Source: Faecalibacterium prausnitzii
Lineage (GTDB): Bacteria > Bacillota > Clostridia > Oscillospirales > Ruminococcaceae
Direction: 5' to 3'
Length of the DNA: 64,000 bases
NCBI RefSeq assembly: GCF_003287405.1
Contig: NZ_PRLD01000003.1
Coordinates: forward strand, 186,001-250,000
The notes under the pieces are model-generated. The model did no database searches. It was not told the origin of the DNA and saw nothing but the letters and a program-made list of their open reading frames with translations. The position numbers and the translations under genes are program-made. Of this stretch, positions 51,992 to 57,554 are shown in pieces (within the stretch, counting starts at the first letter, position 1; the number at the start of each line of letters is the position of its first letter).

Positions 51992-52675
51992 ATGAATAAA
52001 TTGACGCAGGCTCTGATGGAAGAGCTTACCGTGGAGTATGTCAAGGTCGGCTCGCTGCAGATCCCGGAATCGGTGGTCATCAGCTGGGTGATCATGTTGC
52101 TGCTGGTGGTGGGCTCCATCCTGCTTACCCGCAACCTGAAGGTGGATCACATCAGCAAGCGTCAGGCAGCACTGGAAGCGCTGTACTCCCTTGGCAAAAA
52201 CTTCTTTGAAGGGTTGCTGGGCAAGGAGGGCAGCCGCTATGTGCCCTACCTGATGACCGTGGCGCTGTACATTGCCTGCTCCAACGTGATCGGTGTGTTC
52301 GGCGTAAAGCCCCCCACAAAGGATCTGGACGTGACCGCTGCGCTGGCGCTGATGAGCATCGTGCTCATCGAGTATGCAGGCGTTCGCGCCCGGGGCGGCG
52401 CGGGCTTTCTCAAGAGCCTTGCAGCCCCTACCCCCATCATGACCCCTATGAACATCCTCGAGATCGCCATTCGCCCCACCAGTCTGTGTATGCGACTGTT
52501 CGGCAACGTGCTGGGCGCGTTCGTTATTATGGAACTGCTCAAGCTGGTGGTGCCGGTGTTCGTCCCGGCGGTGTTCAGCTTGTATTTTGACCTGTTCGAT
52601 GGTCTGATCCAGACCTATGTTTTCGTGTTCCTGACCGCACTGTTCATGAAAGAGAGCATCGGCGGCGAGGAATAA
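51992..52675 (+). CDS. atpB: ATP synthase subunit a
   Basis: Membrane stator channel of the Fo sector, 227 residues. Shows PTPIMTPMNILEIAIRP, then SLCMRLFGNVLGAF with the essential Arg (residue about 170) facing the c-ring, and a final hydrophobic hairpin QTYVFVFLTALFMKESIGGEE. The ATG at 51992 has AAGGAGGAAAAG upstream; an open frame further upstream has no support. First gene of the operon; no atpI is visible. Confidence 0.95.
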   Translation: MNKLTQALMEELTVEYVKVGSLQIPESVVISWVIMLLLVVGSILLTRNLKVDHISKRQAALEALYSLGKNFFEGLLGKEGSRYVPYLMTVALYIACSNVIGVFGVKPPTKDLDVTAALALMSIVLIEYAGVRARGGAGFLKSLAAPTPIMTPMNILEIAIRPTSLCMRLFGNVLGAFVIMELLKLVVPVFVPAVFSLYFDLFDGLIQTYVFVFLTALFMKESIGGEE

Positions 52676-52716: not shown

Positions 52717-52944
52717 ATGAGTGGTTTGGTAGCTCTGGGCGCTGGCATTGCAGCGCTGACCGGCATTGGCGGCGGTATTGGCATTGGTATTGCAACGGGT
52801 AAGGCAACGGAGGCTATCTCCCGCCAGCCGGAAGCTTCCGGTAAGATCCAGACGAACCTGCTGCTGGGCGCTGCTCTGGCAGAAGGTACCGCAATTTTCG
52901 GCTTCGTCGTTGCACTGCTGATCATCCTGTTCCTGGGCCAGTAA
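52717..52944 (+). CDS. atpE: ATP synthase subunit c
   Basis: A 75-residue helical hairpin proteolipid forming the rotor ring. Gly-rich first helix ([15 protein letters not shown]), polar loop RQPE, second helix with the ion-carrying Glu in [11 protein letters not shown]. The Gly after that Glu and the absence of a Gln in helix 1 argue for proton rather than sodium coupling (inference from ion-site motifs). AAGGAGAT precedes the ATG. Confidence 0.96.
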
Positions 52945-52959
52945 CGGAGGCGTGGACGA

Positions 52960-53451
52960 ATGCTGAAGTTGGATTTGAACCTGCTGTGGACCGTGGTGGA
53001 TGTCCTGATCCTGTATGTGCTGCTGCGCAAGTTTTTGTTCAAGCCCATCCAGAACGTGCTGGATCAGCGCCAGAAGACGATCGAGGCAGACATTGCAGCG
53101 GCACAGACCTCCAAGACCGAGGCCGCCGCAGCACTTACGACTGCGCAGGACAAGCTGCGTAATGTGGACAACGAAGCCGCAGCCCGCCGCGAAGCCTACG
53201 AAAAGCAGGCCGAGGTGGAGAAGCAGCAGCTGCTGGCCGATGCGCAGAAGCAGGCCGACGAGATCGTGGCTGCCGGTAAGGCTGCTGTGGAGATCGAGCG
53301 CCAGAACAAGCTGCGGGAAGCAGATGCACAGGCTACGGCACTGGCACGCTCCATGTGCGAAAAGCTTTTGAAACATAATTTGACCGCCCAGGATGATGAT
53401 CAGCTGCTGGACGATCTGCTGCAGAAAGCAGGTGCAGGCAATGGCAACTGA
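52960..53451 (+). CDS. atpF: ATP synthase subunit b
   Basis: Peripheral stalk subunit, 163 residues: one N-terminal membrane segment (LLWTVVDVLILYVLLRKFLF) and a long charged coiled coil (about 35-150) rich in Ala/Glu/Lys/Gln. The C-terminal end should bind the delta C-terminal domain, which here is part of the next protein. Its last 11 bases overlap the start of the delta-alpha gene. Confidence 0.95.
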   Translation: MLKLDLNLLWTVVDVLILYVLLRKFLFKPIQNVLDQRQKTIEADIAAAQTSKTEAAAALTTAQDKLRNVDNEAAARREAYEKQAEVEKQQLLADAQKQADEIVAAGKAAVEIERQNKLREADAQATALARSMCEKLLKHNLTAQDDDQLLDDLLQKAGAGNGN

Positions 53452-55195
53452 ATTCAGTCGTGAATTTTTTGCGGATAACCGCATCGTCAAGGCCAGCCTG
53501 CGCTGCGCCCATAAACTCCGCGAAAAAGATCTGGACCGCATCAAGTCGGAGATCAAAAAGCTGTATGACGCCACGGAAGTCATCCTGAACATCACCGTGG
53601 ACGAGAGCCTGCTTTCCGGCTATGTCCTGCAGGTGGGCGACCGCGTGTTCGACAATTCCGGCCGTCATCAGCTGGACAAAATGATGGAGGGCAAGCCCTC
53701 GCTGGCTACCCTCAAGACCCGCATCGAGGACTACAAGCCCGCCGAGACCTCTGCAGAGGGCGGCGTGGTCATCTCCTCTGCCGATGGCATCGTGCACATT
53801 GACGGCATGAACCGCGCTGTGTACGGCGAGATCGTCACCTTTGAAAACGGTGCCAAGGGCATGGTGGAAAGCGTGGAGCCCGAGCAGCTGGGCGTTATGC
53901 TGTTCGATGGTGCCGAGACTGTTGGTGTGGGCACCATGGTCACCCGCAGCGGCAAGCGCGCCGGTATCCCGGTGGGTGATGCTTTTCTGGGGCGTGTCAT
54001 CAGCCCGCTGGGCGAGCCCATCGACGGCAAAGGCCCCATCGAGGCCGAGGGCTACAACCCCATTGAGAAGCAGGCACCCAGTATTCTGGAGCGCCAGAGC
54101 GTGGACACCCCGCTGCACACCGGTATTCTGGCCATCGACTCTATGTTCCCCATCGGCCGCGGTCAGCGTGAGCTGATCATCGGCGACCGCCAGACCGGTA
54201 AGACTTCTATTGCCACTGATGCCATCCTGAACCAGAAGGACAAGGATGTGCTGTGCATCTATGTTGCCATCGGTCAGAAGGCTTCCTCCATCGCCCGCGT
54301 GGCAGAGGATCTGAAAAAGCATGGCGCTATGAGCTATACCACCATCGTGGCAGCTACTGCGTCGGATTCTGCCCCGCTGCAGTACATTGCCCCCTATGCA
54401 GGCACTGCACTGGCCGAGTACTTCATGGCCAAGGGCAAGAGCGTGCTCATCGTTTACGATGACCTGTCCAAGCACGCGGTGGCCTACCGTGCCATCTCGC
54501 TGCTGCTGCGCCGCTCTCCGGGTCGTGAAGCTTACCCCGGCGATGTGTTCTATCTGCACTCCCGTCTGCTGGAGCGCTCCTGCCGTATGCGGGATGATCT
54601 GGGCGGCGGCTCTATCACCGCACTGCCCATCGTAGAGACGCAGGCCGGCGATGTTTCGGCTTACATCCCCACCAACGTCATCTCCATCACCGATGGTCAG
54701 ATCTTCCTGGAGAGCGCCCTGTTCAACGCCGGCAACCGCCCGGCTGTCAACGTGGGTCTGTCGGTTTCCCGTGTGGGTGGCGCTGCCCAGACCAAGGCTA
54801 TGAAAAAGGCCAACGCAAACCTGCGTATCGAGCTGGCGCAGTATAAGGAGATGGAATCCTTTGCACAGTTCAGCTCCGATCTGGACGCTGAGACCCGCCG
54901 CCAGCTGGAGCACGGCAAGGCACTGATGGAAATGCTCAAGCAGCCGCTGTGCCAGCCCAAGTCTGATGCCGAGCAGGTGGTCATTCTGGTGCTGGCCTCT
55001 CATGGCCTGCTGGACACTCTGCCCACCGCAGAGCAGCGGGAAAAGACCGCTGCCTTTGTGCGGCAGTTCCGTGCAGACGTCTCCGGCACCATGCAGAAGA
55101 TCGATGCCGACGGCAAGCTGGAGCCCGACCGGGTGGACGCCATCCTGAACGCTTGGAAAGCTTATGCGGGAGGCAATGACCATGTCGTCCAGTAA
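53441..55195 (+). CDS. atpA: ATP synthase delta C-terminal domain fused to alpha subunit
   Basis: A single 584-residue frame. Residues 1-80 match the C-terminal domain of delta/OSCP (ATEVILNITVDESLLSGYVLQVGDRVFDNSGRHQL-type region, about 43-78). From about 81 it is a complete alpha subunit: SLATLKTRIEDY, GVVISSADGIVHIDGM, P-loop GDRQTGKT, the SRVGGAAQ region with the catalytic Arg, and a normal C-terminus. The N-terminal six-helix domain of delta is absent, and no separate atpH is present in the operon. Met-Met at 81-82 (53681-53686) would start an ordinary 503-504-residue alpha, so internal initiation is possible. Confidence 0.9.
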   Translation: MATEFSREFFADNRIVKASLRCAHKLREKDLDRIKSEIKKLYDATEVILNITVDESLLSGYVLQVGDRVFDNSGRHQLDKMMEGKPSLATLKTRIEDYKPAETSAEGGVVISSADGIVHIDGMNRAVYGEIVTFENGAKGMVESVEPEQLGVMLFDGAETVGVGTMVTRSGKRAGIPVGDAFLGRVISPLGEPIDGKGPIEAEGYNPIEKQAPSILERQSVDTPLHTGILAIDSMFPIGRGQRELIIGDRQTGKTSIATDAILNQKDKDVLCIYVAIGQKASSIARVAEDLKKHGAMSYTTIVAATASDSAPLQYIAPYAGTALAEYFMAKGKSVLIVYDDLSKHAVAYRAISLLLRRSPGREAYPGDVFYLHSRLLERSCRMRDDLGGGSITALPIVETQAGDVSAYIPTNVISITDGQIFLESALFNAGNRPAVNVGLSVSRVGGAAQTKAMKKANANLRIELAQYKEMESFAQFSSDLDAETRRQLEHGKALMEMLKQPLCQPKSDAEQVVILVLASHGLLDTLPTAEQREKTAAFVRQFRADVSGTMQKIDADGKLEPDRVDAILNAWKAYAGGNDHVVQ

Positions 55196-56060
55196 GCTGC
55201 TGAAGGAGCGCATCGAGAGCATTCAGGATACCATGAAGATCACCAATGCCATGTACCTGATCTCTTCGTCCAAGCTGCGCAAGGCACGGCAGAACTACCA
55301 GAATGTGTCCCCTTACTTTAACCGTATGCGGGATACCATCTCCCGTGTTGTGCCGCATCTGCCGGAGGAGCCGGAGCACCCCTTCTTCCACGAGCGGAAT
55401 CTGGAAAACCCCCGGCGGGCGTATCTGGTGCTTACTGCCGATAAGGGCATGGCAGGTGCTTATAACCAGAACCTGCTCAAGTTTTTGCGGGAGCACGCAG
55501 ACCCCAACGACCGCTTTTATGTCATCGGTCAGGTGGGCTACCGCGCTCTGCGCCACCGGGACCCCCGCCTTGTGGAGGAGTTCCGTTACAGCGCTACCGC
55601 ACCTACCCTGCAGCGTGCCCGCGACATCACGGTGGACGCCATTGATGACTTCAAGTCCGGCAAGCTGGACGAGATCTACATCGTTTACACCAAGATCCAG
55701 AACGCCCTTACCAGCGAGCCTGTCATGGAGCGTCTGCTGCCGCTGGATCGGCGGTTTTTGCAGCCTGCTCCCAAGGGTCTGGGCGACCCCAAGGGCGAGG
55801 TGGAACTGGTGCCGGACGCATGGACGGTGTTCGAGCAGATCGCACCCATCTATATGCACGGCATGATCTTTGGTGCCATGACCGAGAGCTTCTGCGCCGA
55901 GCAGAGCGCCCGCATGACCGCCATGGATTCTGCTACCAAGAGCGCCAATGACATGATCCGGGATCTGCAGCTGGAATACAACCGCACCCGTCAGGGCTCC
56001 ATTACACAGGAGATCACCGAGATCATCGGCGGCGCGGCTGCCGTGCAGGATCGGACATAA
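55182..56060 (+). CDS. atpG: ATP synthase subunit gamma
   Basis: Rotor shaft, 292 residues, coiled-coil N- and C-terminal helices (LKERIESIQDTMKITNAM ... TESFCAEQSARMTAMDSATKSANDMI) around a Rossmann-like domain with LTADKGMAGAYNQNLLK, a divergent form of the usual SDRGLCGGFN block. The ATG at 55182 has GGGAGG 8 bases upstream and overlaps the alpha gene by 14 bases. Confidence 0.93.
   Translation: MSSSKLLKERIESIQDTMKITNAMYLISSSKLRKARQNYQNVSPYFNRMRDTISRVVPHLPEEPEHPFFHERNLENPRRAYLVLTADKGMAGAYNQNLLKFLREHADPNDRFYVIGQVGYRALRHRDPRLVEEFRYSATAPTLQRARDITVDAIDDFKSGKLDEIYIVYTKIQNALTSEPVMERLLPLDRRFLQPAPKGLGDPKGEVELVPDAWTVFEQIAPIYMHGMIFGAMTESFCAEQSARMTAMDSATKSANDMIRDLQLEYNRTRQGSITQEITEIIGGAAAVQDRT

Positions 56061-56126: not shown

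Positions 56127-57553
<1,427 letters not shown>

Positions 57554-57554
<1 letters not shown>

What the first reader, a model, noticed from the sequence alone, without database searches (positions are those of the whole stretch)
53441..55195. Delta C-terminal domain fused to the ATP synthase alpha subunit, no separate delta gene
The sequence shows one continuous frame: 80 residues matching the C-terminal domain of delta (OSCP), followed by a complete alpha subunit. The operon is otherwise complete (a, c, b, alpha, gamma, beta, epsilon) with no atpH. F1 normally holds three alpha and one delta, so a plain fusion would give three delta domains per complex. An internal start at Met81/82 would make a normal-length alpha, so one gene could supply both a fused and an unfused form. 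Loss of the N-terminal delta domain, which normally grips the top of alpha, also makes sense if it is covalently attached.
Basis: partly seen in the sequence, partly recalled or inferred. Interest (0 to 1): 0.85.

Follow-up and report, generated by a model that had tools for sequence, protein, structure and literature searches.

The report
Natural delta–alpha fused ATP synthase
A gut bacterium carries, beside an ordinary ATP synthase, a second one in which half of the delta subunit is built onto the front of alpha, an arrangement that in an engineered enzyme gives up to three side stalks and more protons per ATP, so nature may already use such multi-stalk machines.

Summary
The fusion is real. 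[quoted passage not shown] It occurs in 22 of 30 same-genus (Faecalibacterium) genomes (names) and is under purifying selection. Two corrections. The genome does have a full atpH, in a second, ordinary F-type operon. The proposed internal start Met81/82 has no Shine-Dalgarno and is missing in 2 of the 14 genomes of its type; across 88 fusions junction start signals are no commoner than background (27 of 88 against 204 of 528; unfused alpha 31 of 42). In 36 of 41 fused genomes that I tested the fused gene is the only alpha. So three delta domains per F1 is the likely state. Ueno et al. 2025 built this very fusion, saw up to three stalks and a subunits and a doubled H+/ATP ratio, and named a natural case, Acidaminococcus. 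New here: repeated origin in the phylum, and b-delta-alpha triple fusions that would tie one stalk part to each alpha. Stalk number is untested.

The parts
51992..52675 (+). atpB, subunit a (227 aa)
   Evidence: PF00119 E 4.2e-41; NF004486 over its cut-off
52717..52944 (+). atpE, subunit c (75 aa); lacks the ligand pattern of the genome's other c (H+-type by recalled motif)
   Evidence: PF00137 E 2.9e-18; TIGR01260 over its cut-off; sequence
52960..53451 (+). atpF, subunit b (163 aa); stop overlaps the fusion start by 11 nt
   Evidence: PF00430 E 1e-20
53441..55195 (+). fused delta-CTD/alpha gene (584 aa)
53441..53686 (+). delta (OSCP) C-terminal domain, residues 1-82
   Evidence: PF00213 profile 89-169/172, E 3.1e-15; PDB delta chain 5t4o_L 112-172
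53687..53761 (+). junction, residues 83-107: end of the delta domain and shortened alpha N-terminal helix; 36 residues lie between the last delta strand (VFD) and the alpha barrel
   Evidence: alignments; linker count
53681..53686 (+).
53705..55144 (+). complete alpha subunit (residues 89-568)
   Evidence: TIGR00962 E 3.2e-213
55182..56060 (+). atpG, gamma
   Evidence: TIGR01146 from residue 7 of the ORF that begins at 55164
56142..57554 (+). atpD, beta (470 aa)
   Evidence: TIGR01039
57554..57961 (+). atpC, epsilon with C-terminal domain (135 aa)
   Evidence: PF02823 and PF00401

Best explanation
The gene makes a delta-CTD/alpha subunit that fills all three alpha places of F1. The delta N-terminal cap, which sits on the threefold axis and limits ordinary enzymes to one peripheral stalk, is gone. 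Each alpha therefore carries its own docking site for a b dimer, and each b dimer can bring an a subunit, so the enzyme can form up to three stalks and three proton channels on one c-ring and moves more protons per ATP. That favours ATP synthesis at low proton-motive force. Shown here: the fusion, its conservation, the missing N-terminal domain, the absence of an internal-start signal above background, and the fused gene as sole alpha in most of the relatives tested. Shown by others in an engineered homologue: up to three stalks and a subunits, doubled H+/ATP. Inferred: that the Faecalibacterium enzyme does the same.
For: Same architecture as the engineered PS3 deltaDeltaN-alpha enzyme, which formed up to three stalks and a subunits (H+/ATP 5.8 against 3.0; PMC12229609, abstract, passages and two sections). 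The window protein aligns in one stretch (17-535 on 5-534) to the 580-aa delta/alpha chain of PDB 9jc1. Junction start signals: fused 27 of 88, interior background 204 of 528, unfused alpha 31 of 42; no start codon at all in 19 of 88 (background 43 of 528). The fused gene is the only alpha in 36 of 41 fused genomes tested, and G370 has two, both fused. Triple fusions b'-deltaCTD-alpha: 14 distinct ORFs of 735-767 aa; Pfam finds OSCP over its gathering score in 14 of 14 and subunit b at E 0.01 or better in 13 of 14, over the gathering score in 8. They tie one b' to each alpha. Purifying selection on the delta part, dN/dS 0.20 over 36 pairs.
Against: No protein, structure or flux data on any natural fusion. 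Type A fusions (10 distinct ORFs) keep most of the delta N-terminal domain (Pfam OSCP from profile position 3-27 to the end), which by the symmetry argument should not fit three times; so fusion alone need not mean multi-stalk. Codon tests cannot exclude cleavage or rare start codons. 12 of 88 junctions do have an ATG with at least a 4-nt SD match, and the window has two Met codons there. In the engineered enzyme particles with three stalks were rare on the grid, which its authors put down to loss in preparation. My structure prediction never ran. G000 also has an unfused alpha and a delta that could in principle mix.
Confidence: 0.55

Rival explanations
1. All three alphas carry the delta domain, but only one holds a b dimer and one a subunit; the other two domains are idle. 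The fusion is a cheap tether that made the N-terminal domain dispensable.
For: Fusions that keep most of the delta N-terminal domain exist (type A), and free delta-CTD genes of 72-74 aa exist in three genomes, so fusion and loss of the N-terminal domain come apart. In PS3 cryo-EM particles with three stalks were rare (PMC12229609; the authors blame sample preparation).
Against: The engineered counterpart holds about twice the a and b per gamma by SDS-PAGE. b'-deltaCTD-alpha fusions put a b' on every alpha.
Confidence: 0.28
2. The gene supplies both fused and unfused alpha, by internal initiation at Met81/82 or by cleavage, giving one fused alpha and a normal single stalk.
For: Two adjacent Met codons at a suitable place (53681, 53684), kept in 12 of 14 genomes of the window's type. 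Gamma-beta fused ORFs in three other genomes keep an SD-like sequence and a start codon for beta (read by eye), so such a device can exist.
Against: No SD at either Met; absent in G009 and G028; junction starts not above background in 88 fusions and no start codon in 19.
Confidence: 0.12
3. The full delta of the second operon serves this enzyme too, and the fused domain is a remnant.
For: A full atpH is in the genome.
Against: 36 of 41 fused genomes tested have only one alpha gene. The fused domain is under purifying selection. The two alphas of this genome fall in separate clades.
Confidence: 0.03
4. Assembly error or decayed gene.
For: None found.
Against: Identical in three other genomes and, for the delta part, in a complete chromosome; dN/dS 0.20 in the delta part and 0.095 in alpha; Walker A pattern in 101 of 102 fused alphas and the S(V/A)SRVG motif in 102 of 102.
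Confidence: 0.01

Closest known systems
Engineered Bacillus PS3 deltaDeltaN-alpha FoF1 (Ueno et al. 2025, PMC12229609; PDB 9jc1 by inference from its chain title)
   Same: Delta N-terminal domain removed, delta CTD joined to the alpha N-terminus; about the same length (580 against 584 aa).
   Different: Man-made, with the epsilon C-terminal domain removed as well; the natural operon keeps epsilon whole, and its protein aligns with 11 fewer residues over delta CTD, junction and barrel (query 17-200 on chain 5-199).
Natural deltaDeltaN-alpha fusion of Acidaminococcus fermentans and UniProt G4Q3K6, A0A1I2C5T3 (one passage in the same paper's discussion)
   Same: Same two features by the authors' account: delta fused to alpha, delta N-terminal domain missing.
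   Different: Other organism. I did not fetch those sequences. The parts of the paper that I saw report no experiment on them.
Mycobacterium/Gordonia b-delta fusion (PMC5709465, passages seen)
   Same: Delta is part of a fusion within the stator.
   Different: There b and delta are joined and alpha is separate, so alpha's threefold copy number is not involved.
N-ATPases (PMC5706428, passages seen)
   Same: No separate delta gene.
   Different: Described there as lacking delta, with a longer b. The window alpha stays under the N-ATPase alpha cut-off (TIGR03324 579.6 against 750.5) and passes atpA.

Membership tests
F-type ATP synthase alpha (TIGR00962) | Score over curated cut-off | tested here: met
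   709 against 484.45
Delta/OSCP C-terminal domain (PF00213) | Match over gathering score confined to the C-terminal half | tested here: met
   57.1 bits against 22.3, profile 89-169/172
Delta/OSCP, whole subunit | N-terminal helical domain present | tested here: not met
   Match begins at residue 2 of the protein and profile position 89
deltaDeltaN-alpha fused F-ATPase (kind of Ueno et al. 2025) | Delta CTD fused N-terminally to alpha; delta NTD and separate delta absent from that operon | tested here: met
deltaDeltaN-alpha fused F-ATPase (kind of Ueno et al. 2025) | More than one peripheral stalk and a subunit per complex; raised H+/ATP | not testable with these tools
   needs purified enzyme
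N-ATPase | alpha over TIGR03324 cut-off | tested here: not met
   579.6 against 750.5
b/delta fusion (PRK13428) | b and delta in one chain, over cut-off | tested here: not met
   26.2 bits for b and 16.3 for the delta part, cut-off 328

The most novel reading that the evidence does not exclude
F-type ATPases with three peripheral stalks and three a subunits are a natural class that arose several times in this phylum, in its extreme form with the stalk covalently continuous from membrane to alpha (b'-deltaCTD-alpha). Faecalibacterium keeps two ATP synthases of different ion type and different gearing, a one-stalk enzyme and a multi-stalk, high-H+/ATP one for low proton-motive force.
Probability: 0.45. 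Interest if true: 0.92.

Novelty: new member of a known kind. Interest (0 to 1): 0.74.

Why it matters
One stalk and one a subunit per F-ATPase is taken as a constant that sets the H+/ATP ratio to c/3. A 2025 engineering paper broke it on purpose and proposed that nature may do so too. This operon, in a culturable human gut commensal, with fused relatives in 73 of 396 order genomes (own genome included) and at least 23 of 398 phylum genomes, turns that proposal into a direct test. The b'-deltaCTD-alpha fusions make the sharpest prediction. If true, energy budgets of many anaerobes need a different ATP gear ratio.

Tried and rejected
Internal start as the general explanation: not supported by codon and SD statistics. 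N-ATPase and b/delta fusion membership: rejected on model scores. Assembly artefact: rejected. 'No atpH in the genome': rejected. Open frames near 690 aa in G034-G036 hold a TAA between full delta and alpha; they are separate genes. G051 (779) is likewise unfused, and the 781-aa frame of G055 proved to be a triple fusion. A one-clade AU test on 144 alphas did not finish; a 47-row careful tree was used instead. The arginine motif that I tried for subunit a was too strict (51 of 108) and is not used. Paper searches listed one work on a delta-alpha fusion.

Full report
WHAT IS THERE. ORF 53441-55195 is 584 codons with no stop inside. Residues 2-82 match the C-terminal part of the Pfam OSCP/delta profile (89-169 of 172; E 3.1e-15, 57 bits against a gathering score of 22.3), and residues 89-568 match the atpA model (709 bits against 484). 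The first 85 residues find 14 distinct solved delta/OSCP chains at E 0.01 or better, best 3e-6, always in the C-terminal part of the chain. The gene starts inside the end of b (11-nt overlap) with AGGTG ending 6 nt upstream. Around it lie a, c, b, gamma, beta and epsilon in the usual order and no separate atpH.

CORRECTION ON ATPH. The genome (G000, 3.03 Mb, 99.64% complete) has a second OSCP match, full length, E 6.7e-41, on contig C50. It lies in a second complete operon: a 167-aa ORF, then a, c, b, delta (179 aa), alpha (513), gamma, beta, epsilon. The two alphas are 55% identical. The c subunit of that operon reads GPGIGEG...SETTGIYG, the window's GGGIGIG...AEGTAIFG. By the recalled Ilyobacter ligand pattern the first is Na+-type and the second H+-type; this is not tested. 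The genome also has RnfC (E 6.8e-120).

WHOSE IT IS. The delta part (105 residues) is 100% identical in Faecalibacterium prausnitzii ATCC 27768 and in the complete chromosome of Faecalibacterium sp. I4-1-79, and 83%, 78%, 52% and 30% in four further Faecalibacterium records. Of the 22 named loci, 20 carry the fusion (three cut by contig ends); L183 and L193 do not. Of 30 same-genus genomes, 22 carry a fusion: 13 of the window's type and 9 of a second type, 55-57% identical over the aligned part. Two more have contig-end fragments that begin in the delta part, and the remaining 6 show none in the listing. In the alpha tree the two types are not sisters.

SELECTION. Over 36 pairs of nine sequences of the window's type, dN/dS is 0.196 for codons 1-80, 0.208 for 81-105 and 0.095 for 106-580. 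The delta part is constrained, less tightly than alpha.

HOW WIDE. A profile of the junction was run on 396 order genomes and 398 phylum genomes (two overlapping samples; G000 and G054 are among the fused of both). Counting listed genomes with a row that runs from model position 18 or lower to 139 or higher with no stop, 73 of 396 and 23 of 398 carry a fusion (my count; both listings are cut at low scores, so these are lower bounds; one phylum row, G608, sits in a short frame, probably a contig end). I read 20 loci, 60 (two of them free delta-CTD operons) and those that searches returned, and typed them with profiles built here: 87 distinct fused ORFs. Type B, delta CTD-alpha like the window: 62. 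Type A, delta with most of its N-terminal domain, then alpha: 10; Pfam OSCP starts at profile position 3 in one, 18-19 in two and 24-27 in seven, so the very start of delta is gone in most. Type C, two delta CTDs in tandem then alpha: 1 (L133; two OSCP stretches). Type D, b'-delta CTD-alpha, 735-767 aa: 14. Pfam finds OSCP over its gathering score in 14 of 14 D proteins; subunit b at E 0.01 or better in 13 of 14 (not L148), over the gathering score in 8. A separate b of 138-152 aa stands before them in the 12 D loci whose upstream genes were printed. Besides these, three genomes have a free delta-CTD gene of 72-74 aa before an unfused alpha (L045, L155, L156). One locus (L169) has an N-terminal extension without a delta match in my profiles and was left out of the 87.

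ORIGINS. A 144-row alpha-core tree (N-terminal part left out) needs 6 changes between fused and unfused (quick tree, 49 of 141 inner branches open; L169 counted as fused). The one-clade test did not finish. A careful 47-row tree, rows chosen by me, needs 5, 4-6 in bootstraps, at least 3 forced by well-supported branches. Gain and loss cannot be told apart. The 14 D rows are one side of a branch (support 100). One well-supported pair joins a type A fusion (L150) to an unfused full-delta operon (L049).

IS THERE AN INTERNAL START? The window's Met81 and Met82 codons have no useful SD (0 and 3 nt), against 5 nt for the gene's own start. The pair is kept in 12 of 14 genomes of the window's type (window included) and missing in G009 and G028. 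For 88 of 102 distinct fusions (14 dropped because the barrel motif was not found), a start codon with at least 4 nt of SD at a spacing of 4-10 occurs within 40 codons before the alpha barrel in 27 (12 with ATG). The same test gives 31 of 42 for unfused alphas (1 of 43 dropped), and 204 of 528 for interior alpha zones of the same fusions. Fused against unfused p = 5e-6; fused against interior p = 0.19. No start codon at all: 19 of 88, against 43 of 528 interior zones. An earlier pass with a zone tied to the delta end gave 19 of 87 without any start codon and 12 with an ATG plus SD. As a contrast, three genomes with a gamma-beta fused ORF keep AAGGA(G) before a start codon of beta (read by eye). 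So internal initiation is not the general solution, though it cannot be excluded in a minority, nor can cleavage.

IS THERE ANOTHER ALPHA? I searched 44 genomes of my choice with the alpha core at E 1e-60; 41 carry a fusion. In 36 the fused gene is the only alpha; G370 has two, both fused; G364, G121, G797 and G197 have a further alpha. The other three are the free delta-CTD genomes. Among 15 D genomes 12 have only the fused alpha (one of the 15, G363, was typed by frame length alone). The genomes are 85-100% complete, so a missed gene is possible.

HOW IT MOST LIKELY WORKS. F1 has three alphas. If the only alpha is fused, F1 carries three delta CTDs, each a docking site for a b dimer. Ueno et al. 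2025 (PMC12229609; abstract, passages, sections 10 and 13 seen) argued that the delta N-terminal domain, on the threefold axis, restricts the enzyme to one stalk. They deleted it in Bacillus PS3 and fused the CTD to alpha. The enzyme formed up to three stalks with up to three a subunits (cryo-EM; three-stalk particles were rare), about twice the a and b per gamma by SDS-PAGE, and an H+/ATP ratio of 5.8 against 3.0, with synthesis at half the pmf. The window protein has the same domain order, the same missing domain and nearly the same length, and aligns in one stretch to the 580-aa delta/alpha chain of PDB 9jc1 (that this entry is theirs is my inference). I therefore hold the multi-stalk reading as the likeliest, at 0.55. 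The steps that are inference: that three b dimers do bind in the natural enzyme, and that three a subunits do work. The single-stalk reading with idle delta domains remains a serious rival, above all because type A fusions keep an N-terminal delta domain. In a fermenter with low proton-motive force a high H+/ATP ratio would permit synthesis where an ordinary enzyme stalls; this role is not shown.

WHAT IS KNOWN AND WHAT IS NEW. The kind is in print: the engineered enzyme, and a passage on Acidaminococcus fermentans and two UniProt entries. I found no other paper on a delta-alpha fusion (listings from an open-access library that lacks most subscription papers). New here, as far as those searches go: its presence in Faecalibacterium beside an ordinary ATP synthase, its breadth and repeated origin, the b'-delta CTD-alpha, tandem-CTD and N-domain-keeping forms, the free delta-CTD genes, and the codon evidence that fused alpha is usually the only product.

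LIMITS. Type B calls rest mostly on profiles built from these loci; Pfam was run on the window, on five other type B proteins and on every type A, C and D ORF. The structure job was never accepted because the machine was busy, so fold evidence is by sequence only.

Noticed in passing
L141:1178-3586 (-), L144:1188-3548 (-), L149:5444-7804 (+): Gamma and beta form one open frame of 786-802 aa in three genomes (G328, G156, G106), confirmed by Pfam: a rotor subunit fused to a catalytic stator subunit. Each keeps an SD-like AAGGA(G) and a GTG or ATG near the beta start. In L138 gamma runs into part of beta, then the frame breaks.
   Followed up: partly
L040, L041, L076, L086, L117, L118, L121, L126, L127, L129, L135, L136, L143, L148: Triple fusions b'-delta CTD-alpha, 735-767 aa; in the six printed an (L/I)TPGD(M/I)xYL motif precedes the delta domain. 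No start codon in the junction zone of L117 and L041.
   Followed up: yes
L117, L118, L121, L126, L127, L136, L143, L148: In these b'-delta CTD-alpha operons epsilon ORFs are 83-119 aa, most of them probably without the C-terminal helix, as in the engineered enzyme.
   Followed up: no
L008:4611-11571: Second, ordinary F-type operon of the same genome, with a c subunit of Na+-type look by recalled motif.
   Followed up: partly
L045:4508-4726 (+), L155:5277-5501 (-), L156:5172-5390 (-): Free delta genes that consist of the C-terminal domain only (72-74 aa), before an unfused alpha.
   Followed up: partly
L133:4041-6068 (+): Two delta C-terminal domains in tandem before alpha in one frame (675 aa).
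   Followed up: partly
L119, L120, L124, L125, L128, L130 and other type B operons: c-subunit ORFs of 119-155 aa with about 40 or more extra N-terminal residues, perhaps a signal peptide; a is often long too. ORF starts are mechanical and were not checked.
   Followed up: no
L153:6485-6961 (-): Two c genes in tandem in G216.
   Followed up: no
L193:3684-5231 (+): In a Thermoanaerobaculales MAG delta lies at the end of a 515-aa frame with a long N-terminal part, alpha following separately; perhaps a b-delta fusion.
   Followed up: no
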